Below are positions 47,246 through 64,000 of a DNA stretch of 64,000 bases, piece by piece. Under the pieces are notes generated by a model. The model had not been told where the DNA came from. It made no database searches and saw only the letters and a list, made by a program, of their open reading frames with translations. A program made the translations under genes and the position numbers. The stretch is from Sorghum bicolor (Eukaryota > Streptophyta > Magnoliopsida > Poales > Poaceae), in assembly GCF_000003195.3 (NCBI RefSeq), contig NC_012870.2, positions 12,826,501-12,890,500 on the forward strand, given 5' to 3'. Each line of letters opens with the position of its first letter. Position 1 is the first letter of the stretch.

Positions 47246-50200
47246 TGTGGCAGAACCCCCTAAGTGTTCGGGCCCACCGGCACCTGCCATTGTCCTAAGG
47301 ACCTCTGACGGTGATGCCGGGAGTCCTCCCACTTTAGAAGTCCGATGAGCATCACGGGACGCTCATTCCACTGCTACCTGTGGCGTACCAAGCTGCTCGT
47401 CCTGACCACTGGTAATGGTCAAACAACGAAAACTGCTTCTTCTCGCCCTTACAGGATAGCAAGTGGCCACCTTAACACCAGGATCATTCGTTGCGAAGAT
47501 AAAGCAGTAACTCAACGACACAAGACCAAAATAATATTTCAGAGTGAAACAGCGGAAGTATTACATAACTTAATTTACAAAAGGAGTTCTTCCAAATAGT
47601 AGAGTGTTATTACAAGCCTGGTCCAGCGGAGCAACTGAAACTTTAGTATAGACAGCACAAATTTACAGACCCTGCCCATGGGTCACGCTTATTCTTCTTC
47701 GTCGTCAACCTCGACGACGGTCACACAGCAGGGTCCGAAACAAGTCGGCTCCTGCGCTTCACCTGCAACAGGGGTATTGAAACCCTGAGTACGGGAGTAC
47801 TCAACAAGACTTATCCGACGGAAAAAGAGGAGAATTTAGGGATGCAGGCTTAGGGTAGACAAGGGGTGGCTAAGCAAGGAGCCCAATTGTTTTGCGTAAA
47901 AGCTTACTAGTAGTGCATCCTTATTTTCAAGTTTTACCCCGAATTCCTCCCTCGCAGAGGCAGAGGAATTCGAGGATAGTCTAACTGGTTGTTCCCCACA
48001 GACGAATCCGTGAGTTCCTAGTCCTATCATTAAGTATTATTTATCGATGGCCATAGCTTCATGTCGCTATGAGTCCGGGAATTGGGATCCGAATCTCATG
48101 AGACATTTTCCCCTTTCTCATTTTATCACTTAGTTGCATATTTAACTACGATGAGGGTCGAAGGAATTGAGTCTCCCAATCGGGGAGCAACGACGATTCG
48201 AATCGCTTAGCAATCCAGCTGGAGTTCCTAACCACCCGACATATGTAGAATCAAATCTTGCATATATCAACCCAAATCAAGCTCTCCCCAAATTTGACCA
48301 GGTTCGCGGCACCCGAGAGCACAGTACTCCACCATCCTACAGCCGATCTAGATGTTTTCCGGTCATCTCAGATCCGTAAGGTGGGTACACACTACTCTCG
48401 CCATCTTTCCACTCCCAGTGCGCGAGTAGCTGTTCGCGTCGAGGGATCACAAGACTGGGCTTGCCGAGGGCAAGTGGCTAGTACTATAAATTCTCAACCC
48501 AGCAGGCCAACAACGGACCGGTCCTTAATCGACACAGTTGGAGACACTACTTTAAGACTCCATTCTTAAAGCAAGTCCACCGACCGGTCTCAATTTGAAA
48601 CATCATTGATCATAAGTGTATTCCACAACAACCCTTCAAACTTTCTTGTTTTAAAACCTATCTAGTAGCAGGGCTAAGCATCACTACGCAGTTTAAAATA
48701 AAACAGGTGTCAAGGACAGGATAACAGATATCAAGGTAGTAAATGCAGCAAGTAGGTTAACCCAATTCTCAACTACCTAATGCAGCATTTTCAATTCATA
48801 AGTGATAAAAGATTTAAAACATCCAAGGAGGGGTTAATGCATCCGGGGCTTGCCTTGGTTGCAGGGCAGAGAGGGACCCTCGGAGACTTCCCAAGTCTCG
48901 GATCCGACTTCCTCGAACGGAGCACCGACCTCGGGGTTCGGTTCAACGGGCGCTCCTTCGGTCACGGACACTATACGCAAAATGATGAATGCTCATGAGA
49001 TGCGTATGACAATTATGCAAGAAGGGCTAAATCAAGTACAATTTGTCTTCCCAATGCAATATAGAATAATTAATAATAAATTTGTTCACTAACCTATTGT
49101 TTTTACTCAAGAGGTTGCATCTGTAATCTAAGACTTTATTTAATTCATAATTATCTTAAATTAATTAATTATTAAATCTATTTATCTTAATTAATTTTTA
49201 ATTAATTACTAATGACAGTAATTAAGCATTAGGGCTAAACAACAATTAAATGCCAAAGGTCATTAGGGTTAATGACCTCAGGTCATCACACAATCCAAAA
49301 GTCACTCAACCCTAATTATGAGGATTTAACTAATCACTAGTTAATTATTTTGGAATTATTATTCAAGTACTAAATAAGGGTTTATTAATATTTCAATCAA
49401 ACATTATCCAAATGCTACCAAATTTTGTGTGGAGCCAGGGAATAATATTCAGAGGCTCCCCACAATTTTTGGTGATTTTTGGACATGTAAATAAATTATT
49501 AAAATTCTTAGAAGTTTTATTCATTATATAAAGTAGGAAATTTTTACACCCTTGCAAACTATTGGAAAACAGATACTAATATTTTTCCATTGTTCTATTC
49601 CTTTTAGGGAAGCTCTACAAAAATTCCTATGATTTTTGAATCAACACAGGATTTATTACACAATTTCAAATATAAAACAAAAACTGCATAAAAGAAAAAA
49701 AAGAAAAGACATTGCAGCGGGTGGCCGGATTTCGGCCCGCAGGCCGGCCCGCTTCGGCTCGGCCCGCGCGGACGCTGCGCACGCCGCCTTCTCTCCGCGC
49801 GTCCGCTGACGAGCGGGGCCTGCTCGTCAGGCCCCTCCCCCCTTCCAGCGAGACGCTGACAGGACGACCCCGCCTGTCAGCTGCGTCTCCTACGCGTACG
49901 GCGGCGCTGCCGCAGCTCCGGCGGCCGCTAGCGAGGTCCCTGGCTCCCGCGTGCGCGCGCACCAGCTCCGCCTCACCTCCGCGGACCCCTCTCTACCACG
50001 TACTCGCGCTCTTCTGCCTTCTTCCTATCGCAACCGCGTCACCGGCGGACGGCCGCCATGGCCGACTATCGGCCGGCCACCAGGACCCGGTAGAGTGCAA
50101 GCTGACGGTCTAGGGAGCTCCTACAGGGGTTGGGGAGGATGGTGCTCACGGTGCAAGTCTCGGGGAAGCAGCTGAAGCCGCTGGCGACGGAAGCAGTGTC

Positions 50201-51518
50201 GTCGGGCGGGAGCTCTGGCTCCGGCCAGCTTGTTCCGGTGATCCTGCTCACATTCAAGGAGAGGGAGCAAGCGCATGAGCAACCGGGGCACGGAGGGAAC
50301 TCGAAACAGTCGCCAGAGGGGTGTGATACTCACTGGAATACCGTGGCCACGGGAAGAACTCCGCGGCGGCGGTCTCGGCCGGAGTTGGAGAAGAGGGAGG
50401 AGCTCTGGCGTTTGAGGGGGTTAGAGAGGAAATTTGGGGGTGCACTGGATTCGCAAGGAGGTGGCGAATACGGCAGCGTGCTCAATTTGGCGCGAAAGGA
50501 ACGGAGTGCGGTGGATTTCAGAGAGAAAGAGATCGAGTTCCTCCGGCCGTGGTCAGTGAAAACGGACGGCGTCGTCCACGTCGGTGCTCAAGTGGAGGGG
50601 GAAGGCAAGTCCGGGGCATCCACGTCGCCTGGCGACCCTGGCAGCAAGCAGCTGCGTGCACTCACGCATGCGCGCGGCGCTGCTCGCGCGGCAGCTGCGC
50701 TGGACAGGGTGCCGGTGATCCCTATCGGATCACTGTAGCAACCCCTATCTTCCCCCTTTTGTCCCCTTGCGAAATTCAGCCAAAATTTGAACTAAAGCCC
50801 AAATTCCACCAAAACAAAAGTTGTGCCAAATTTTGTAAGCTACAAATCATATTTAGGTGACCAGAGCTGATTTTGAGTGTAACAGGGTGAATTTGGCCAA
50901 AACAGTTTGAAAATCAAACTCAAATCAAGGAAATTCCAAATTTTTGAATTGCGGCAAAACAGAATTTCCAAAATTACTTTTGATTTTGCATAACAACTTG
51001 AAAAACTCCCAACATGAAAGTTGCTCAACTTTTTGTGCTCTACAACTTTCTTGTTGACCACTTTTTAAAATTCCAAATAGATTTTGAACTGGGGTTTTAA
51101 GTTGGAAAAGGGGACAATTTCTGGAAATCTGTATTTTCAAAATTACTTTGAATTTTGTATTGAAACTTCAAAAACTCAAAACACCAAAGTTGTACATCTT
51201 GCCAAGAGCTACAACTTTGCTTTTGAACTCAACCTCAAATTTTGCTTAGTTTTTGACTTATGCAAAAGGGGGCAATTCTAGGATCCAGAAATCAGGGTTT
51301 TTCCCCCCCTTAGCTTTTCGGAAAATTCCCACCCTAGGATTTTAGCAACCACACAAGCATCAACATTCCACATAAACACACTCTACCTCCCTAAGCTCAA
51401 GCAATAAAAATAAACTTGTTTTAAGTTGATGCATGCCAATGTGCTTTAACAAATATGATTTGCAATGCTCATGATGACATGATCCATTTTTAGTAACCGT
51501 AACATCAGGGATGTTACA
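47246..51518 (-). repeat. 3' LTR (4273 bp)
   Basis: Starts TGTAACATCCCTGATGTTAC and ends GGTTCTGCCACA when read in element sense, so TG...CA ends. A ~1-kb GC-rich block (49715-50745) sits between AT-rich arms. Near the start (50960-51225) a ~168-bp degenerate tandem repeat occurs (CAAAATTACTTT...CTACAACTTT). Plus-strand ORFs within it, up to 202 aa, are antisense and have no family resemblance. Confidence 0.95.
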
Positions 51519-51535
51519 GCCCTTCCCCCTTAAAG
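51519..51535 (-). promoter_or_regulatory. Polypurine tract of the nested chromovirus
   Basis: Minus strand reads TTTAAGGGGGAAGGGC immediately before the 3' LTR. This is the expected plus-strand primer site for reverse transcription. Confidence 0.8.
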
Positions 51536-51725
51536 AAATCTCGTCCCCGAGATTTAAAACCTTAGGGTAAGTAATGGAAAAGGAAATTTGTCAAAACTCT
51601 TTCATCTTCAACTTTTCCATAAGGCAAGGAGTTGGGGAAAAAAATACTTCATTATAAGTATATATGTACATTAAGTACATGGCTTTGGTGACTCTTTTCC
51701 TTCACTAGAGTACACTCTCTGGTTA

Positions 51726-54700
51726 TCATCTATTGTCCTGAAGAGAAGCATGGAATTCAGGAAAATTCTCTAGCAAGTAATCCTCAGATTCCCAGGTGGC
51801 TTCTTCTTCAGAGTGCTGGCTCCATTGTACCTTATACCATTTGGTGGTTGTTCTTCGAGTAACTCTATCTTTTTGATCCAGTACTCGGATAGGATATTCC
51901 GAATAAGTTAGATCTGGTTCAAGCTTTACATCTTCAATATCTTGAACTCGGTCTGGTACCCGAAGACACTTTTTCAGTTGAGACACATGGAACACATTAT
52001 GTACCCCGGATAATCGTTCGGGCAGTTTAAGGCGGTAAGCGACTTGTCCACATCGGTCAATAATTGGAAATGGACCAATGTAACGAGGCGCTAACTTGCC
52101 TTTAACACCAAAACGATTTACTCCTTTCATTGGGGATACTTTCAAATATACATGATCACCTTTGGCGAACTTCAATGGTCGACGTCTTTTATCAGTGTAA
52201 CTTTTCTGTCGGGACTGAGCAACTTTCAAGTTATTTTGGATTTGTTTCACTTTGTTCTCAGTCTCTTTCACTAAGTCAACTCCGAAGAACCATCTTTCTC
52301 CAGGTTCCGACCAGTGTAACGGAGTTCGACATCGGCGACCATACAGTGCCTCAAAGGGAGCCATTTTGATACTCTCTTGATAGCTATTATTGTAGGAAAA
52401 TTCTGCTAGAGGCAAGCAGTCATCCCACTTATCTGGAAAATTCAGGGCACAAGATCTTAATAGATCTTCTAGGGTTTGATTCACCCTTTCAGTTTGCCCA
52501 CCGGTTTGAGGGTGGTAGGCTGTGCTGTATAAAAGCTTAGTGCCCAGGGACTCATGTAAACATTTCCAGAATTGGGAGACAAATTGTGTGCCTCTATCCG
52601 ACACTATTGTTTTTGGCACCCCATGCAGACTTAGGATACGGTCGAAATAAATCTTAGCATAGGTGGAGGCAGGATACAATAGCTTTACCGGCAGAAAATG
52701 TGCTGTTTTGGTGAGACGATCGACTATGACCCAAATGGAATCAAATCCCTTGGCCGTCTTGGGTAACCCTACTATGAAATCCATACTTATGTCATCCCAT
52801 TTCCATGCGGGGATAGGCAAAGGTTGCAACTCCCCAGCGGACTTGAGATGAATGGCTTTGACTTTTCGACAGGTATCACATTGGGCCACATAACGAGCTA
52901 TCTCTATCTTCATTTTTGTCCACCAAAATCTTTGCCTTAGGTCCTGATACATCTTATTGCTTCCCGGATGAATAGAATACCTCGTGGTATGAGCTTCATC
53001 TAGGATTCGTTGACGTAACTCAGGTACCTTTGGAACCACTAACCGGTTCTTGAACCAAATTACTCCTGCATCATCCACCCTAAAGTCGGTGGGTGCTCTA
53101 TTAGAAATCTTTTCTTTAAGATGTTTCATACCTTTGTTTTCTTTTTGTGCCTTTATGATTTGAGCTTCGAGATCGAAATCGATCTTTAAATTGGAAAGGC
53201 TTCCTTGGGAAATCATTTCTATTCCCAAGTTCTCTAGCTCTTGGCACAAAGTTATATCCCTAGGCGTCACTGTTAAGCAATTACAGTGAGCCTTACGACT
53301 GAGGGCATCCGCTACTACATTTGCCTTGCCAGGGTGATAATGCACCTCAAGGTCGTAATCTTTAATTAACTCTAGCCACCTTCGCTGGCGCATATTAAGC
53401 TCGGCTTGAGTAAAGATATACTTCAAGCTTTTGTGATCGGTGTATAAATGACATGTGTTCCCCAACAAATAATGACGCCAGATCTTTAATGCATGTACCA
53501 CGGCGGCTAGTTCGAGATCATGGGTCGGGTAATTCTCTTCATGCGGTTTGAGTTGCCTGGAGGCATAAGCAATTACACGACCCTCCTGCATTAGCACACA
53601 GCCTAATCCAATCCCCGATGCGTCACAATATACATCAAAGGGTTTTTCAATATCTGGCTGGGCTAAGACAGGTGCAGTTGTCAACAACCTTTTCAGAGTC
53701 TGAAAGGCTTGCTCACATTGGGGTGACCAAACAAATTTTGTTTGACTTTTGAGCAAGGTTGTGATTGGTTTGGCAACTCTGGAAAAGTCCGGGATAAAAC
53801 GACGGTAATATCCCGCCATGCCCAGAAAACTACGGACCTCATGTACCGTAGTCGGGGGTTTCCAATTCAACACATCTTCTACCTTGCCTGGGTCTACAGC
53901 GACTCCTTCCGCTGATAATACATGACCCAGGAAATGAACTTTGTCCAACCAGAATTCACATTTGCTGAACTTGGCATATAGCTGATGCTCCCTAAGACGG
54001 GTCAGCACGATTCTCAAGTGTTCAGCATGTTCCTTCTTAGTCTTGGAGTAAATCAAAATGTCGTCAATAAAGACAACAACAAATTTATCTAGTTCTGGCA
54101 TGAAGACAGAGTTCATCAGGTACATAAAATGGGCCGGTGCGTTAGTCAACCCAAAAGACATCACCAAGTATTCATACAGCCCGTAACGGGTTGTAAAAGC
54201 TGTCTTGGGCACATCTTCCGGCCTAATTTTAATTTGGTGGTACCCTGATCTCAAGTCAATTTTTGAGAATACCTTGGCCCCGGCTAACTGGTCAAATAAT
54301 AAGTCAATGCGGGGCAGTGGGTACTTGTTCTTAATCGTCACCTCATTTAGGGGACGATAGTCGACACACAGCCTTAATGTGTGATCTTTCTTTTTCACGA
54401 ACAAGGCTGGGCAACCCCATGGAGAAGAACTGGGCTGAATAAAACCTTTCTGTAACAACTCCTGTAATTGGGCTTTTAATTCAGCCAGCTCTTTCGGTGC
54501 CATTCTGTAGGCCCTTCGAGATATTGGGGCTGTCCCTGGTTTCAATTCTATACTGAATTGTACATCCCGGTCCGGAGGCAGACCTGGTAAGTCTTCAGGA
54601 AATACATCCAGGAAATCTCGAACTACCGGGATATCTTTGACTTCAGACACCTTAGCGGCATGAACTTGCCCAATTGTCCGCTTGGGAGTGACTAATTGAA

Positions 54701-56258
54701 TTAGCAAGTAAGAATTCTCATTGGGCAATGGAATTTTAATAGTTCGATGCAAAGTGTCCAACACAACCCCTCGTTGTGCCATCCAGTTCATGCCTAAGAT
54801 GACATCAATCCCTTGGTCCTTAAGGACAATCATGCTAGTAGGAAAATTGTGCCCACCAAATTCGATGGGTACTTGGTGAACCATTTCTTTAGACATCAGC
54901 CGTCCTCCTGGCGACTGTATATAAAAATGATCTTGTGTTTCCCCAATGGGTATGCCATGCTTTAACACAAAGGTGCGATTAATGAATGTATGGGATGCAC
55001 CAGAATCGAAGAGCATTAAAGCAGGATGTTTCGCGACAGGAAACGTACCCATCATCACCGGTTCACCCTCTGGAATCGTTTCCACTTCAGTATGGAAAAC
55101 TTGCCCTGTCTTCTTTACCGGTCTACCTTTCTGTACTTGTTGCCCTTTCTGAGCCCCAGTTCTGAACTGACTCGGCTGGGGTTGGCCCATAGGTGGCCTT
55201 GGAAAGGTAGGGTTGGTTTGGCGGGGAAAAGGGCACTCTTTAGAGAAATGCCCAGGCTTACCACAATTGAAGCAAGGGTAATTGTGGCTGGGCGGAGCAG
55301 TAGGGCGAACACCCAGGGCGTTCGGCTGGCGTGGTGCAAAAGCGATGGCAGTAGGTCGAGAGTATACCTGCTGCCCAGGTCTGTACTGTGGAGGGGAGAA
55401 AGGACCACGATAAGGTGACGGTGCTTGGAAACGTCCGTGGCCCTGTGGATGATATAGGATCCTCTGGCGCTTTTGACCGCGACCAGAGAAAGAAGAGGAA
55501 GCAGCCTTCTTCTTGGCTTCCTTGTGTTTCCTATTCTTTTCCTCAGAGGCGATGGCAATATTTACCGCCTCATAGAAAGTAGCATTTTGGCAAGTGGTCA
55601 TCATGGTCTGAAGTTTAGTATTTAGACCACGCATGAAACAGGCTTTCTTCTTCCTGTCTGTGTTCACATAATCCGTGGCATATTGAGAGAGATGATTGAA
55701 CCTTGCCACGTATTCCATAACACTCTTATCGCCTTGCTGCAAGGCGAGAAACTCTTCGGCCTTCATTGCCATGAGCTCTTCGGGGATGTAGTGGGCGCGA
55801 AACGCGTCCCTAAACTCGGTCCAGGTAACTTGGTGTCCGGGAGCTTGAATAGCTAAGAAGTTCTCCCACCAGGCACCTGCAGCTCCTCGAAGCTGCTGAG
55901 CTGCAAATAGGGGTTTCTGAGTTTCTGAACACTGAATCAAACTGAACTTATGTTCCATGGTTCGGAGCCAGTCATCCGCTTCTAAAGGCTCATCGGCCTT
56001 TGTGAACACCGGGGGCCTGGTCTCGGTAAAATCCACATACCGAGTCTCTCCGTCCCCGTTACGCGGTGCCCTGAAGTTTGGAGCAGGGTGTGGTTGACGC
56101 TGTGCTAGCTCGCGCAGCAAGCGAGCATTATCAGTAGTGGCACTTAACAAAACAGCAATGGCGTGAGCCAAAGAAGGCGGAGCAGGTGGAGGGTTGGGGA
56201 TATTATCCCCTCCCTGAGATGTTCCAGCTCCATCAGATCCGCGAGTACGCATCGGCAT
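51726..56258 (-). CDS. Gag-Pol polyprotein of Ty3/gypsy chromovirus (1510 aa)
   Basis: Single uninterrupted frame. Order of domains: retrotransposon Gag (about 80-210), CCHC zinc knuckle [14 protein letters not shown] (from C329), aspartic protease with DSGASH (D418), reverse transcriptase with FIDD (D732/D733), RNase H with YCDASG (D879), integrase zinc-binding domain (HPG...CDTCRK), and DDE core D1160, D1221, E1257. A chromodomain-like tail follows at about 1455-1502 (Y1455 and W1479 of the aromatic cage present, third cage residue not evident). All catalytic residues are present. The PR-RT-RH-INT order defines Ty3/gypsy, and the tail defines a chromovirus. The ATG context is weak (CAG before ATG), and the ATG follows a sequence that looks like a 3' splice site. 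It shares a frame with the upstream accessory ORF but is separated by stops. Confidence 0.96.
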
Positions 56259-56465
56259 CTGTTACAAGAATCGTAGATACCTGTTACCACGTAAAATTCA
56301 TAACACAGAACATATCTTACATTCACTTATTAAACATTAGTTCGACACATCAAGAGTAAACAAGTACAACTTTTCAAACCAAAAGAGGACTTATATATTA
56401 CAAACCCGAACCCCACTACGGCAAGCTAAGATCCCTACAACGACGTTGCCCTCGGTTTCACCGAA
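56259..56465 (-). promoter_or_regulatory. Spacer with candidate 3' splice site before gag
   Basis: 207 nt between the accessory ORF stop (TAG) and the gag ATG. Several in-frame stops rule out simple readthrough. It ends TCTACGATTCTTGTAACAG|ATG, pyrimidine-rich with a terminal CAG exactly at the gag start codon. That could allow a spliced mRNA with gag first. Inference only. Confidence 0.4.
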
Positions 56466-57170
56466 CTAATCGGTGTGGCCAGAGCTGTAGCCCGGGTCGT
56501 CATTGCCATCATCCTGATTACCCCCTGGGTTGTGGTCATCGGGGTCGGACTCCTCTTCATCACTGAGGCCTGGATCGGGTTCTCCATCGTCTGCCAGCTC
56601 GCCATCCGTATCCATTTCTCCTTCGCCGGGAGGTGGGTGGAGTTGATGATACAGATCAAATGCAATATCACGATATTGCATAGCCAAATCATTAACTGTA
56701 TCTAAGTGATGTGCCAGCTCCAGTTTCTCCAGCTGGAGCTGGTCCTCTCGTTGCCACGCGACATCCCGTTGTGCGGTGACCGTGGCCGCCATCTTCACAT
56801 ACAAATCCTTAAGATACTTGGCCTTGCCCAACTTTGCGTTCATCCTAGTTAACTCATGCCTATGGGTGCTCCTAGCTTCTTCCTCTCGGGCAATGGCTGC
56901 ATTCCGCTCCTCCACCATCCGAGACAACATAGCTTCACAATTTTCTGTAGCTTGTTTTTCTTTGGCCAGTTGAGCTTTAAGTTTGCCAATCTCCATAACA
57001 TTGTACATTCTCTCTCTCATCACCTCAGTCAACTCGGCGGACAACCTGTCCACCTCCTGCTGAGGCGGTGAACGGCTACTACTGGCTTGATCACTGCGTG
57101 GAGCTAGCTGATGTCGGGGAACTCCTTTTGGACCAGTCCGCTTACGCGGGGTCTGCTTCTGACGAGCCAT
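56466..57170 (-). CDS. Accessory ORF with histone H3-tail-like N-terminus (234 aa)
   Basis: Lies between the primer site and gag in the element's sense; not a standard Ty3/gypsy gene. The first residues, MARQKQTPRKRTGPKG, match mature histone H3 (ARTKQTARKSTGGK) at A1, R2, K4, Q5, T6, R8, K9, T11, G12 and K14. A PR-QLA match follows, offset by one residue. There is no histone fold. Residues about 38-165 are a long Glu/Lys/Arg/Leu-rich helix with heptad character (coiled coil). The last ~45 residues are strongly acidic (DGELADDGEPDPG...). The start context is optimal (A at -3, G at +4). It sits directly after CTCACCCTCTACAG|G, a strong 3' splice-site look-alike. Function unknown; the H3 resemblance suggests interaction with chromatin readers or writers, or with the element's own chromodomain. 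Confidence 0.8.
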   Translation of the reverse strand: MARQKQTPRKRTGPKGVPRHQLAPRSDQASSSRSPPQQEVDRLSAELTEVMRERMYNVMEIGKLKAQLAKEKQATENCEAMLSRMVEERNAAIAREEEARSTHRHELTRMNAKLGKAKYLKDLYVKMAATVTAQRDVAWQREDQLQLEKLELAHHLDTVNDLAMQYRDIAFDLYHQLHPPPGEGEMDTDGELADDGEPDPGLSDEEESDPDDHNPGGNQDDGNDDPGYSSGHTD

Positions 57171-57529
57171 CCTGTAGAGGGTGAGTTTAGATTAGTAAGG
57201 GAGACCTTAAAGGTTAGCAAGAATAGGACTGATTCTATTCACCCAACCCAAACAAGGAGGAAGGAACTTAACCAGTTAATATATCATGATGCATGCACGA
57301 ACTTACGATTCCTACTAACAATTCATAACAACAGGACCTTAAATTTTTACAACATAGGGCAATACTTTATGTTGCTCCTCCATACCACTTCAAAAATTCT
57401 AAGAAAGCCTACAGACAGGGATAGGTTATGACTAAGCACTTGGACTCAAAATAGGCAGATTTATAGTACTAGATCCAAACGAATTTTTGAAGTTTTTCAA
57501 TAAGTACAGCAGTCATCTTAGCAACGAAT

Positions 57530-57541
57530 GCTCTGATACCA
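57530..57541 (-). promoter_or_regulatory. Primer binding site (initiator tRNA-Met)
   Basis: Minus strand TGGTATCAGAGC, two bases after the end of the 5' LTR. It is complementary to the 3' end of plant initiator tRNA-Met, the usual primer for plant chromoviruses. Confidence 0.9.
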
Positions 57542-57543
57542 GC

Positions 57544-60500
57544 TGTGGCAGAACCCCCTAAGTGTTCGGGCCCACCGGCACCTGCCATTGTCCTAAGGAC
57601 CTCTGACGGTGATGCCGGGAGTCCTCCCACTTTAGAAGTCCGATGAGCATCACGGGACGCTCATTCCACTGCTACCTGTGGCGTACCAAGCTGCTCGTCC
57701 TGACCACTGGTAATGGTCAAACAACGAAAACTGCTTCTTCTCGCCCTTACAGGATAGCAAGTGGCCACCTTAACACCAGGATCATTCGTTGCGAAGATAA
57801 AGCAGTAACTCAACGACACAAGACCAAAATAATATTTCAGAGTGAAACAGCGGAAGTATTACATAACTTAATTTACAAAAGGAGTTCTTCCAAATAGTAG
57901 AGTGTTATTACAAGCCTGGTCCAGCGGAGCAACTGAAACTTTAGTATAGACAGCACAAATTTACAGACCCTGCCCATGGGTCACGCTTATTCTTCTTCGT
58001 CGTCAACCTCGACGACGGTCACACAGCAGGGTCCGAAACAAGTCGGCTCCTGCGCTTCACCTGCAACAGGGGTATTGAAACCCTGAGTACGGGAGTACTC
58101 AACAAGACTTATCCGACGGAAAAAGAGGAGAATTTAGGGATGCAGGCTTAGGGTAGACAAGGGGTGGCTAAGCAAGGAGCCCAATTGTTTTGCGTAAAAG
58201 CTTACTAGTAGTGCATCCTTATTTTCAAGTTTTACCCCGAATTCCTCCCTCGCAGAGGCAGAGGAATTCGAGGATAGTCTAACTGGTTGTTCCCCACAGA
58301 CGAATCCGTGAGTTCCTAGTCCTATCATTAAGTATTATTTATCGATGGCCATAGCTTCATGTCGCTATGAGTCCGGGAATTGGGATCCGAATCTCATGAG
58401 ACATTTTCCCCTTTCTCATTTTATCACTTAGTTGCATATTTAACTACGATGAGGGTCGAAGGAATTGAGTCTCCCAATCGGGGAGCAACGACGATTCGAA
58501 TCGCTTAGCAATCCAGCTGGAGTTCCTAACCACCCGACATATGTAGAATCAAATCTTGCATATATCAACCCAAATCAAGCTCTCCCCAAATTTGACCAGG
58601 TTCGCGGCACCCGAGAGCACAGTACTCCACCATCCTACAGCCGATCTAGATGTTTTCCGGTCATCTCAGATCCGTAAGGTGGGTACACACTACTCTCGCC
58701 ATCTTTCCACTCCCAGTGCGCGAGTAGCTGTTCGCGTCGAGGGATCACAAGACTGGGCTTGCCGAGGGCAAGTGGCTAGTACTATAAATTCTCAACCCAG
58801 CAGGCCAACAACGGACCGGTCCTTAATCGACACAGTTGGAGACACTACTTTAAGACTCCATTCTTAAAGCAAGTCCACCGACCGGTCTCAATTTGAAACA
58901 TCATTGATCATAAGTGTATTCCACAACAACCCTTCAAACTTTCTTGTTTTAAAACCTATCTAGTAGCAGGGCTAAGCATCACTACGCAGTTTAAAATAAA
59001 ACAGGTGTCAAGGACAGGATAACAGATATCAAGGTAGTAAATGCAGCAAGTAGGTTAACCCAATTCTCAACTACCTAATGCAGCATTTTCAATTCATAAG
59101 TGATAAAAGATTTAAAACATCCAAGGAGGGGTTAATGCATCCGGGGCTTGCCTTGGTTGCAGGGCAGAGAGGGACCCTCGGAGACTTCCCAAGTCTCGGA
59201 TCCGACTTCCTCGAACGGAGCACCGACCTCGGGGTTCGGTTCAACGGGCGCTCCTTCGGTCACGGACACTATACGCAAAATGATGAATGCTCATGAGATG
59301 CGTATGACAATTATGCAAGAAGGGCTAAATCAAGTACAATTTGTCTTCCCAATGCAATATAGAATAATTAATAATAAATTTGTTCACTAACCTATTGTTT
59401 TTACTCAAGAGGTTGCATCTGTAATCTAAGACTTTATTTAATTCATAATTATCTTAAATTAATTAATTATTAAATCTATTTATCTTAATTAATTTTTAAT
59501 TAATTACTAATGACAGTAATTAAGCATTAGGGCTAAACAACAATTAAATGCCAAAGGTCATTAGGGTTAATGACCTCAGGTCATCACACAATCCAAAAGT
59601 CACTCAACCCTAATTATGAGGATTTAACTAATCACTAGTTAATTATTTTGGAATTATTATTCAAGTACTAAATAAGGGTTTATTAATATTTCAATCAAAC
59701 ATTATCCAAATGCTACCAAATTTTGTGTGGAGCCAGGGAATAATATTCAGAGGCTCCCCACAATTTTTGGTGATTTTTGGACATGTAAATAAATTATTAA
59801 AATTCTTAGAAGTTTTATTCATTATATAAAGTAGGAAATTTTTACACCCTTGCAAACTATTGGAAAACAGATACTAATATTTTTCCATTGTTCTATTCCT
59901 TTTAGGGAAGCTCTACAAAAATTCCTATGATTTTTGAATCAACACAGGATTTATTACACAATTTCAAATATAAAACAAAAACTGCATAAAAGAAAAAAAA
60001 GAAAAGACATTGCAGCGGGTGGCCGGATTTCGGCCCGCAGGCCGGCCCGCTTCGGCTCGGCCCGCGCGGACGCTGCGCACGCCGCCTTCTCTCCGCGCGT
60101 CCGCTGACGAGCGGGGCCTGCTCGTCAGGCCCCTCCCCCCTTCCAGCGAGACGCTGACAGGACGACCCCGCCTGTCAGCTGCGTCTCCTACGCGTACGGC
60201 GGCGCTGCCGCAGCTCCGGCGGCCGCTAGCGAGGTCCCTGGCTCCCGCGTGCGCGCGCACCAGCTCCGCCTCACCTCCGCGGACCCCTCTCTACCACGTA
60301 CTCGCGCTCTACTGCCTTCTTCCTATCGCAACCGCGTCACCGGCGGACGGCCGCCATGGCCGACTATCGGCCGGCCACCAGGACCCGGTAGAGTGCAAGC
60401 TGACGGTCTAGGGAGCTCCTACAGGGGTTGGGGAGGATGGTGCTCACGGTGCAAGTCTCGGGGAAGCAGCTGAAGCCGCTGGCGACGGAAGCAGTGTCGT

Positions 60501-61816
60501 CGGGCGGGAGCTCTGGCTCCGGCCAGCTTGTTCCGGTGATCCTGCTCACATTCAAGGAGAGGGAGCAAGCGCATGAGCAACCGGGGCACGGAGGGAACTC
60601 GAAACAGTCGCCAGAGGGGTGTGATACTCACTGGAATACCGTGGCCACGGGAAGAACTCCGCGGCGGCGGTCTCGGCCGGAGTTGGAGAAGAGGGAGGAG
60701 CTCTGGCGTTTGAGGGGGTTAGAGAGGAAATTTGGGGGTGCACTGGATTCGCAAGGAGGTGGCGAATACGGCAGCGTGCTCAATTTGGCGCGAAAGGAAC
60801 GGAGTGCGGTGGATTTCAGAGAGAAAGAGATCGAGTTCCTCCGGCCGTGGTCAGTGAAAACGGACGGCGTCGTCCACGTCGGTGCTCAAGTGGAGGGGGA
60901 AGGCAAGTCCGGGGCATCCACGTCGCCTGGCGACCCTGGCAGCAAGCAGCTGCGTGCACTCACGCATGCGCGCGGCGCTGCTCGCGCGGCAGCTGCGCTG
61001 GACAGGGTGCCGGTGATCCCTATCGGATCACTGTAGCAACCCCTATCTTCCCCCTTTTGTCCCCTTGCGAAATTCAGCCAAAATTTGAACTAAAGCCCAA
61101 ATTCCACCAAAACAAAAGTTGTGCCAAATTTTGTAAGCTACAAATCATATTTAGGTGACCAGAGCTGATTTTGAGTGTAACAGGGTGAATTTGGCCAAAA
61201 CAGTTTGAAAATCAAACTCAAATCAAGGAAATTCCAAATTTTTGAATTGGGGCAAAACAGAATTTCCAAAATTACTTTTGATTTTGCATAACAACTTGAA
61301 AAACTCCCAACATGAAAGTTGCTCAACTTTTTGTGCTCTACAACTTTCATGTTGACCACTTTTTAAAATTCCAAATAGATTTTGAACTGGGGTTTTAAGT
61401 TGGAAAAGGGGACAATTTCTGGAAATCTGTATTTTCAAAATTACTTTGAATTTTGTATTGAAACTTCAAAAACTCAAAACACCAAAGTTGTACATCTTGC
61501 CAAGAGCTACAACTTTGCTTTTGAACTCAACCTCAAATTTTGCTTAGTTTTTGACTTATGCAAAAGGGGGCAATTCTAGGATCCAGAAATCAGGGTTTTT
61601 CCCCCCCTTAGCTTTTCGGAAAATTCCCACCCTAGGATTTTAGCAACCACACAAGCATCAACATTCCACATAAACACACTCTACCTCCCTAAGCTCAAGC
61701 AATAAAAATAAACTTGTTTTAAGTTGATGCATGCCAATGTGCTTTAACAAATATGATTTGCAATGCTCATGATGACATGATCCATTTTTAGTAACCGTAA
61801 CATCAGGGATGTTACA
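57544..61816 (-). repeat. 5' LTR (4273 bp)
   Basis: Copy of the 3' LTR at a constant offset of 10298. Substitutions I can see: 60311 (A; T at 50013), 61250 (G; C at 50952) and 61349 (A; T at 51051). It should contain the promoter; I could not fix the transcription start. Confidence 0.95.
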
Positions 61817-62486: not shown

Positions 62487-63118
62487 TTAGCGGCGCTCTA
62501 ATTCCTTAATCTTCTTGTTGGCACTGGCAAGATCTTGCCTAAGGCCTAGTATAATGGTATTGTGGTTAGAGAGCTGCCTAGTGAGGGAATTAATCGAGGA
62601 CTGGTGGTCTATGATAACTCTGTCTAGTCTGCGAACGTCCTCATCAATATCCATTATAGTCTTGCGACGCTTGGAAGGTGTCTCAAAAGCATTGAGAGCG
62701 TGCTTCGGGGTTGCCTTTGGAGGGATGAAACGGACTTTGGCTGCTCTAATCTCTTCAAAGTAAGGCCTTTCCTCCTCCGTAGTGTAGTGAACACTGCTGA
62801 TCTCGCCGCTCCGGTTGGTCTTGACTCCAACGACCCTCTCATTGGGTCTAGGTGGAAGGATCCTTGTGCCGGTTGGCACCTTGATAGTGGTCTTCGTCTT
62901 GGATGATGATCCTTTGAGGAGTAGGGGTTGTGGCGGTGCGGTGAGAACTGGTTGAGCATGGTAAGATTGGGCGGAGCTGCGTTGGTGTAATGGCATGGCT
63001 TCTAGCTGTCGCTCTGTGTTGGCCCCGGGACGAGAGCACGAGCATCGGGGTCTTCCACAGGCTCCATGTTGAGGTTGAAGGGGACGACTTCCCAATCTTC
63101 GTGGTACTTCTCGGCCAT
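62487..63118 (-). pseudogene. Accessory ORF downstream of pol in Athila-type element, frameshifted
   Basis: After pol, in the env-like position of Athila elements. An ATG at 63118 opens a 38-codon frame (MAEKYHEDWEVVPFN...) ending in TAG at 63002. A second frame, open from 63095 to a stop at 62487, carries the rest: a Ser/Pro-rich part, then ...TPSKRRKTIMDIDEDV and a C-terminal coiled coil (RLDRVI...LTRQL...LRQDLASANKKIKELERR). One frameshift probably separates two parts of the original ORF. No signal peptide or membrane segment is seen, so it is not an obvious envelope-like protein. Function unknown. Confidence 0.5.
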
Positions 63119-63495: not shown

Positions 63496-64000
63496 TTAAT
63501 TCTCCGTGGGAAGGTAAAAGTGGACTACGTCTATTTCTTCTAATTCTTTATTGGGCTCTAAAAATAATTTAAGACGTTGACCATTTACCTTGAATAACGT
63601 ACCTTCGTCATTTTGAAGTGTGATAGCTCCGTGGGATGATGACTTAATTACCTTGAATGGTCCTTCCCATTTGCTCTGGAGTTTTCCATGCCCGAAAAGC
63701 TTCACCCTAGAATTAAAAAGTAATACCTTATCTCTGGGTGTGAACTCCTTCTTCTTGATTCTCTTGTCATGCCACCTTTTGACTCTTTCTTTGTAGATCT
63801 TTGAGTTGTGATATGCCTTCTCTCGCCATTCTTCCAATTCCGATAGTTGCATTCTTCTATAATCTCCGGCAACATCTAGGTCCATATTCCATCTCTTTAT
63901 GGCCCAGTGTGTTTTGAACTCTAGTTCAACGGGCAGATGGCAAGTCTTTCCGTACACCAATTGGTATGGAGACATTCCAATTGGGGTCTTATATGCTGTC
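63496..64000 (-). CDS. Athila-type Ty3/gypsy pol, integrase C-terminus (partial)
   Basis: The frame is open from the window edge to the stop at 63496. It reads [21 protein letters not shown]..., the post-catalytic integrase region of Athila-type elements. Then follow a basic segment ([20 protein letters not shown]) and the terminal GPFKV...HGAITL fold characteristic of integrase C-terminal domains. The catalytic part, RT and gag would lie to the right of the window. Confidence 0.85.

What the first reader, a model, noticed from the sequence alone, without database searches (positions are those of the whole stretch)
56466..57170. Retrotransposon-encoded protein with a histone H3-tail mimic
The extra ORF upstream of gag begins MARQKQTPRKRTGPKG. 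Aligned without gaps to mature H3 (ARTKQTARKSTGGK), 10 of 14 positions are identical, including the modifiable residues K4, R8, K9 and K14, while S10 is replaced by Arg. A second block, PR-QLA, follows at H3 positions 16-21 with one inserted residue. The rest is a coiled coil with an acidic tail, so it is not a histone gene. H3K9 and its methylation are bound by chromodomains, and this element's integrase ends in a chromodomain-like domain. The protein could recruit or saturate H3 readers/writers, counter silencing, or tether integrase. I know of no description of such a protein, but that is only my recall.
Basis: partly seen in the sequence, partly recalled or inferred. Interest (0 to 1): 0.93.

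Follow-up and report, generated by a model that had tools for sequence, protein, structure and literature searches.

The report
Plant retrotransposon protein mimicking histone H3
A young, intact plant jumping gene carries an extra protein whose flexible front end closely copies the tail of histone H3, and distant relatives keep that copy, centred on lysine 9, while the rest of the protein has changed, so it may engage the host's gene-silencing machinery.

Summary
Window 56466-57170 (minus strand) encodes a 234-aa protein (ORF0) upstream of gag-pol in an intact Tekay-type chromovirus (47246-61816; LTRs 4273 bp, 3 differences). Its N-terminus matches H3 at 10 of the first 14 positions, and at 15 of H3 1-21 with one inserted residue. 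Against six divergent relatives the first 26 residues are 69-85% identical, the rest 21-42%; some relatives are closer to H3 (MARTKITARKSTG). Profiles built from ORF0s alone retrieve histone H3 from the PDB (best E 2.7e-5 and 9.7e-6; all 60 hits listed in each search are H3 or CenH3). The equivalents of T6, R8 and K9 are unchanged in 16 of 16 clade representatives. AlphaFold2 gives a low-confidence (probably disordered) tail, a 143-residue helix and an acidic tail. ORF0s at this place in related elements are published without known function; my searches found no mention of H3 likeness. Best reading: the rod displays H3-like tails that dock host factors reading H3 around K9, as silencing decoy or chromatin tether; that step is inferred. 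Against: no DNA of relatives was obtainable (no dN/dS), and within one large clade the block is no better conserved than the rest.

The parts
47246..61816 (-). Whole Ty3/gypsy chromovirus (Tekay type), flanked by the 5-bp target-site duplication TCTTA
   Evidence: LTR ends, TSD; domains
57544..61816 (-). 5' LTR, 4273 bp
   Evidence: 99.93% identical to the other LTR, 3 mismatches
47246..51518 (-). 3' LTR, 4273 bp
57530..57541 (-). Primer-binding site TGGTATCAGAGC (complement of initiator tRNA-Met 3' end; the assignment to that tRNA is recalled)
56466..57170 (-). ORF0, 234 aa plus stop: the protein with the H3-like tail
57093..57170 (-). ORF0 residues 1-26: H3-tail-like block MARQKQTPRKRTGPKGVPRHQLAPRS (H3 1-21 with one inserted residue)
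56640..57068 (-). ORF0 residues 35-177: single long helix, presumably a coiled-coil rod
56469..56639 (-). ORF0 residues 178-234: acidic tail, low model confidence
51726..56258 (-). gag-pol, one uninterrupted ORF of 1510 aa (gag, zinc knuckle, protease, RT, RNase H, integrase)
51756..51863 (-). C-terminal chromodomain of the integrase (residues 1466-1501), with the Tekay signature EEATWESE
   Evidence: signature EEXTWEXE from PMC3350952 (passage)

Best explanation
ORF0 is a histone H3-tail mimic carried by a Tekay-type chromovirus of plants. Shown: an N-terminal tail that resembles H3 residues 1-21 beyond chance and that is retained between divergent ORF0 clades, with T6, R8 and K9 unchanged; a long helix behind it; an acidic tail. 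Inferred: the helix oligomerises and presents several tails; the tails are bound (and perhaps methylated on the K9 equivalent) by host proteins that recognise H3 around K9, such as SUVH-type methyltransferases, CMT3-type or agenet-type K9 readers, or demethylases; by occupying them ORF0 weakens H3K9me/DNA-methylation silencing of the element while it is expressed (anti-silencing decoy).
For: H3 resemblance beyond chance. Retention between clades: seven representatives, 21 pairs, first 26 residues 62-92% identical (mean 77%), rest 21-74% (mean 31%), the N-terminus higher in all 21 pairs; maximum-likelihood site rates in 16 representatives: mean 0.43 for residues 2-26 against 1.81 for the other 153 sites (p 6e-6), and 0.50 for residues 2-15, which played no part in choosing the sequences (p 0.0018). 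What is kept is sequence, not just charge: non-basic sites are slower (0.33, n 16) than basic ones (0.62, n 9). K9-centred: T6, R8, K9 equivalents in 16 of 16 representatives, while A1 is identical in 11, R2 in 9, K4 in 10 (R in 6), K14 in 7, K18 in 0; in 132 proteins K9 is K in 130 and the core is ARKS in 87. A low-confidence, probably disordered, region that is the slowest part of the protein is typical of a linear binding motif. Precedent (abstract openings in the listing): plant transposons encode anti-silencing proteins (VANC; PMC10398659, PMC5735166).
Against: No binding, methylation, expression or silencing data. No dN/dS: no DNA of any relative could be fetched (genome search did not complete). 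In a sample of one large clade drawn without using the N-terminus, residues 3-26 are no better conserved than the rest (consensus frequency 0.847 against 0.862) and K9 is K in 58 of 66, as expected if most copies are decaying after insertion. 117 of 249 proteins seen do not show the block reaching position A1, most of those looked at because the called protein starts at an internal codon; a real loss cannot be excluded. The window copy has PRKR at H3 7-10, which fails the mammalian EHMT2 substrate pattern [GCSAKLN]RK[TGQSVMALNKER] of PMC10611923 at its first position. K4 is Arg in 107 of 132.
Confidence: 0.4

Rival explanations
1. Tether: the H3-like tail is held by heterochromatin proteins or by the integrase's own chromodomain and brings the pre-integration complex to (or keeps it off) H3K9-methylated chromatin.
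For: The element has a chromodomain integrase; Tekay elements are chromoviruses; a helical rod with a tail would suit a bridge.
Against: The chromodomain is type II and by eye keeps one of three cage residues; the literature found no interactor for type II (PMC3350952, passage). Related dicot elements integrate without ORF0 (PMC3485330, passage).
Confidence: 0.22
2. Nuclear import: the tail copies the part of H3 that importins recognise, so that ORF0 (and bound Gag or integrase) enters the nucleus. (That the H3 tail is an importin cargo signal is recalled, not looked up.)
For: Resemblance extends to the P16-A21 region of H3.
Against: K14, K18 and K23 are poorly kept: identical in 7, 0 and 3 of 16; an import signal would not need T6, G12 or a fixed inserted Val.
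Confidence: 0.12
3. An ordinary basic nucleic-acid-binding or NLS-like tail that only happens to resemble H3.
For: The window tail is very basic (KQTPRKRTGPKG); the single-sequence database score is weak (E 0.3-1.6); P0045 is matched by 14 of 20,000 of its shuffles.
Against: Family profiles hit H3 at 1e-5 and shuffled columns do not; non-basic sites evolve more slowly than basic ones.
Confidence: 0.13
4. A fossil: an H3 gene's first codons were captured and the stretch is kept for a nucleotide-level reason (packaging, splicing, translation start), not for the protein.
For: Different clades keep different H3 residues (Q5 and K14 in some, A7 and S10 in others), as descent from an H3-like ancestor would give; splice-acceptor-like sequence abuts the ATG.
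Against: Not tested: needs DNA of several clades, which could not be fetched.
Confidence: 0.05

Closest known systems
ORF0 of grass chromoviruses Retrosat2, RIRE3, RIRE8, FRetro3 (Gao et al. 2012, PMC3485330; passages only)
   Same: An extra ORF upstream of a single gag-pol ORF in an element with LTRs above 3 kb; fast-evolving overall.
   Different: That paper inferred hydrolase-like functions from modelling; in its held main text 'histone' and 'coiled' occur 0 times. The LTR ends differ from the ten bases it gives for RIRE8/Retrosat2.
Histone mimics recognised by EHMT1/2 and HP1 (H3K9-like 'ARK' motifs; PMC10611923, passages)
   Same: A short H3K9-like motif in a non-histone protein; ARKS in 87 of 132 ORF0s.
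   Different: Those are motifs of about four residues in host proteins; here the likeness runs over H3 1-21 at a protein's N-terminus in a mobile element. The window's own PRKR fails that motif.
Viral histone mimics such as influenza NS1 (recalled; a related review, PMC10612106, seen only in a listing)
   Same: A parasite's protein copies a histone tail.
   Different: NS1's likeness is a few residues at the C-terminus (recalled); this is an N-terminal, much longer copy in a plant retroelement.
VANC anti-silencing proteins of VANDAL DNA transposons (PMC10398659, PMC5735166; abstract openings)
   Same: Accessory transposon protein proposed to counter silencing.
   Different: VANC binds element DNA; no H3 mimicry; different class of transposon. 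For ORF0 the anti-silencing role is only inferred.
SNAG domain of SNAIL/GFI1 (recalled; papers only in a listing)
   Same: An N-terminal H3-tail mimic that docks a histone enzyme (LSD1).
   Different: SNAG depends on the free N-terminus; many ORF0s have one extra residue before the block (51 of 132) and K4 or R there.

Membership tests
Tekay/Del chromovirus | Ty3/gypsy gag-pol with integrase ending in a chromodomain | tested here: met
   Chromo 24.9 bits, just under the curated 25.1; chromodomains among PDB hits, best E 0.029
Tekay/Del chromovirus | Chromodomain signature EEXTWEXE | tested here: met
   EEATWESE; signature from PMC3350952 passage
Grass ORF0-bearing elements (Retrosat2/RIRE3/RIRE8 type) | LTRs above about 3 kb, ORF0 upstream of a single gag-pol ORF | tested here: met
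   description from PMC3485330 passages
Grass ORF0-bearing elements (Retrosat2/RIRE3/RIRE8 type) | LTR ends TGTCACACCC / GGGCGTGACA (RIRE8, Retrosat2) | tested here: not met
   this LTR reads TGTAACATCC ... TTCTGCCACA on the element's strand
Grass ORF0-bearing elements (Retrosat2/RIRE3/RIRE8 type) | Sequence similarity to the published ORF0 proteins | not testable with these tools
   the published ORF0 sequences are not held; no supplementary look-ups allowed
Histone mimic | Resemblance to a histone tail beyond chance | tested here: met
Histone mimic | The stretch is exposed or disordered | tested here: met
   residues 1-30 mean pLDDT 48-54, no secondary structure (model only)
Histone mimic | Bound or modified by a histone reader, writer or eraser | not testable with these tools
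   needs bench work
EHMT2-type H3K9 substrate motif | [GCSAKLN]RK[TGQSVMALNKER] at H3 7-10 | tested here: not met
   window copy PRKR fails; of 132 relatives ARKS (87), GRKS (2) and ARKA (1) meet it (pattern from PMC10611923 passage)
Histone H3 | Histone fold after the tail | tested here: not met
   one continuous helix 35-177; no histone family among 4 weak Pfam hits

The most novel reading that the evidence does not exclude
A whole group of plant LTR retrotransposons encodes a dedicated, oligomeric histone H3-tail mimic, acquired from H3 or evolved toward it, that is written and read by the host's H3K9 machinery and so lets the element blunt its own silencing or steer its integration: the first retrotransposon-encoded histone mimic.
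Probability: 0.4. Interest if true: 0.93.

Novelty: new variant of a known kind. Interest (0 to 1): 0.85.

Why it matters
How plant LTR retrotransposons, which make up much of many plant genomes, meet H3K9/DNA-methylation silencing is poorly understood, and ORF0 has been a protein without a credible function. A conserved H3(1-21)-like tail gives it a specific, cheaply testable hypothesis (peptide pull-downs). If true, histone mimicry, known from viruses and host regulators, would extend to a large class of plant mobile elements, and natural variants (ARKS and PRKR clades, K4 or R4) would serve as probes of which H3 contacts matter.

Tried and rejected
Looked for DNA of relatives to compute dN/dS: viral contigs with the window protein and two alignments (2, 19 and 23 pattern matches, none confirmed) and genome contigs (82 pattern matches, none confirmed). 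So purifying selection rests on protein rates only.

Rejected: a histone gene (no histone fold); an enzyme (the published hydrolase suggestion does not fit a single long helix); chorismate mutase or Atg16-like labels (Pfam PF01817 at 18.6 bits, below its cut-off of 27; PF08614 precomputed on some relatives), which look like coiled-coil matches. Free-N-terminus (K4/PHD or SNAG-type) recognition as the main function is disfavoured because the residue before the block and K4 vary.

Bias to keep in mind: the relatives were picked by the motif GVPxHxL (or GIPxHxL) near the start, so P16, L20 and the H at position 18 are constant there by construction; T6, R8 and K9 are not. The alignments A1 and A2 were chosen by me from hits that show the N-terminus. 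In one search the 200 column shuffles used 28 alignment columns of A2. In one search the 'rest' includes residue 1.

Full report
What is there. On the minus strand, 56466-57170 is an ATG-to-TAG frame of 234 codons, with an in-frame stop 7 codons upstream (leader). It sits between the primer-binding site (57530-57541) and gag-pol (51726-56258, 1510 aa) of a complete LTR retrotransposon, 47246-61816: LTRs of 4273 bp with 3 mismatches, target-site duplication TCTTA. The gag-pol frame is uninterrupted and has gag, protease, RT, RNase H, integrase and a chromodomain. The chromodomain carries EEATWESE, fitting the Tekay signature EEXTWEXE (PMC3350952, passages). That the host is a plant, probably a grass, is inferred from this lineage and from PMC3485330 (passages), which reports ORF0 in grass elements only; no tool named the host.

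The H3 likeness. MARQKQTPRKRTGPKGVPRHQLAPRS matches H3 at 10 of 14 positions without gaps and at 15 of H3 1-21 allowing one inserted residue. Shuffling the first 30 residues 20,000 times never reached the score. Searching the PDB with the single protein gives 90 hits at E up to 10; of the 60 listed, 59 are H3, aligned start to start, at E 0.3-1.6, below one coiled-coil hit at 0.079: suggestive only. The family settles it: profiles of 22 and 16 ORF0 proteins, with no H3 among them, give H3 at best E 2.7e-5 and 9.7e-6, and all 60 hits listed in each (of 170 and 166) are H3 or CenH3. An N-terminus-only profile scores 27.7 bits on an H3 fragment; 200 column shuffles give a mean of -2.4 and a maximum of 7.5, the reversed profile 0.1.

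The family. The window protein finds 58 proteins; the profile of 22 finds 1849, of which 120 were listed. Of the first 140 sequences (window protein included) 104 show the block near the start and 36 begin downstream of it. Many of those 36 begin at positions where the window protein has internal ATG, GTG or TTG codons (lengths 195, 192, 184, 180), so start choice by a bacterial gene finder is the likely cause, but loss is not excluded. Several divergent relatives are closer to H3 around K9 than the window copy: P0052 MARTKITARKSTG (16 of 21 H3 positions), P0079 MARTRKTARKSTG (15 of 21), P0046 MARTKQTPRKKTG (15 of 21).

Conservation. Among seven representatives (21 pairs) the first 26 residues average 77% identity and the rest 31%, the N-terminus higher in every pair; window against the other six: 69-85% against 21-42%. 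In 16 representatives (from 131 block-bearing proteins of at least 140 residues, clustered at 80%), site rates are 0.43 for residues 2-26 and 1.81 elsewhere (p 6e-6). As those were picked by GVPxHxL, I repeated the test on residues 2-15, outside the motif: 0.50, p 0.0018. H3 T6, R8 and K9 are identical in 16 of 16, G12 in 15, T3 and T11 in 12, A1 in 11, K4 in 10 (otherwise R), S10 in 8, A7 and K14 in 7, Q5 in 6, G13, A15 and K18 in none. So the copied part centres on K9, with K4 tolerated as R, and acetylatable K14, K18 and K23 mostly lost.

Result against. To avoid choosing by the block I searched with residues 60-191 of one relative (1358 hits, 120 listed). 54 of the 120 called proteins begin after residue 10; in the other 66 the N-terminus is not better conserved than the rest (0.847 against 0.862 consensus frequency), and the K9 equivalent is K in 58 of 66. 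Many changes are R to C or H, as decay of methylated CpG would give (inference). This fits neutral decay of inserted copies and says nothing for selection within the clade; the case for constraint rests on comparisons between clades. dN/dS could not be done.

Structure and mechanism. AlphaFold2 with 58 sequences: residues 1-34 without structure and low confidence, helix 35-177 at high confidence, acidic end without structure (mean pLDDT 79.0, pTM 0.42). A disordered tail that is the slowest-evolving part of the protein, and whose non-basic sites are slower than its basic ones (0.33 against 0.62), points to sequence-specific recognition rather than charge. The simplest reading is a rod that displays H3-like tails to host factors reading H3 around K9. 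Whether that serves to sequester them (my first choice, 0.4), to tether the element (0.22), or for import (0.12) is not shown. The element's own chromodomain is a poor candidate partner: type II domains lack Y24 and usually Y48 (PMC3350952, passages), and by eye this one keeps only the tryptophan. The window copy has P7 and R10 (PRKR); the mammalian EHMT2 pattern of PMC10611923 (passages) excludes P7, so this clade may have drifted from, or not yet reached, a full K9 substrate.

Origin. Different clades keep different H3 residues (Q5 and K14 in some, A7 and S10 in others), while P13, G15, the inserted V and H18 are shared by all 16 (the G, P and H of GVPxHxL were part of the filter). That suits descent from a more H3-like ancestor, perhaps capture of the start of an H3 gene, but the tree is unrooted and weakly supported at its centre, so convergence is open.

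Known or not. ORF0 as such is published (PMC3485330). In my searches I found no report of H3 likeness in a retrotransposon ORF0; passages looked at in PMC3485330, PMC13317346, PMC6696364 and PMC3726574 do not mention it. The library holds open-licence papers only, so subscription papers, including the original RIRE3/RIRE8 description (recalled), were not seen.

Noticed in passing
window 57171-57190 and 56259-56275 (minus strand): Splice-acceptor-like sequence abuts both start codons: CTCTACAG-G-ATG before ORF0 and CTTGTAACAG-ATG before gag-pol. Alternative splicing could decide which of the two is translated; the leader also has 6 upstream ATGs.
   Followed up: no
P0044, P0064, P0075, P0130 and similar: Some relatives are called with an in-frame extension before the H3-like block; P0044's ends LTLYRM, matching the window leader read in frame. 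If translated from the earlier Met the block would not be N-terminal.
   Followed up: partly
P0057 and P0049-P0061, C-terminal ends: The acidic tails hold hydrophobic-acidic runs (VINISDDEE, VIYISDD, LVYFSDEDE) that look like SUMO-interacting motifs (recalled pattern, not tested).
   Followed up: no
window 62487-62996, minus strand: 169-aa ORF, basic and Pro-rich with a C-terminal coiled coil; only sub-threshold Pfam matches. Possibly another element's accessory ORF.
   Followed up: partly
window 63496-63975, minus strand: 159-aa ORF resembling the end of a Ty3/gypsy integrase of a different element (sub-threshold SH3_Tf2-1).
   Followed up: partly
window 50139-50738 and 60437-61036, plus strand: Identical 199-aa frame in both LTRs, antisense to the element; no Pfam match. 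Probably mechanical.
   Followed up: partly
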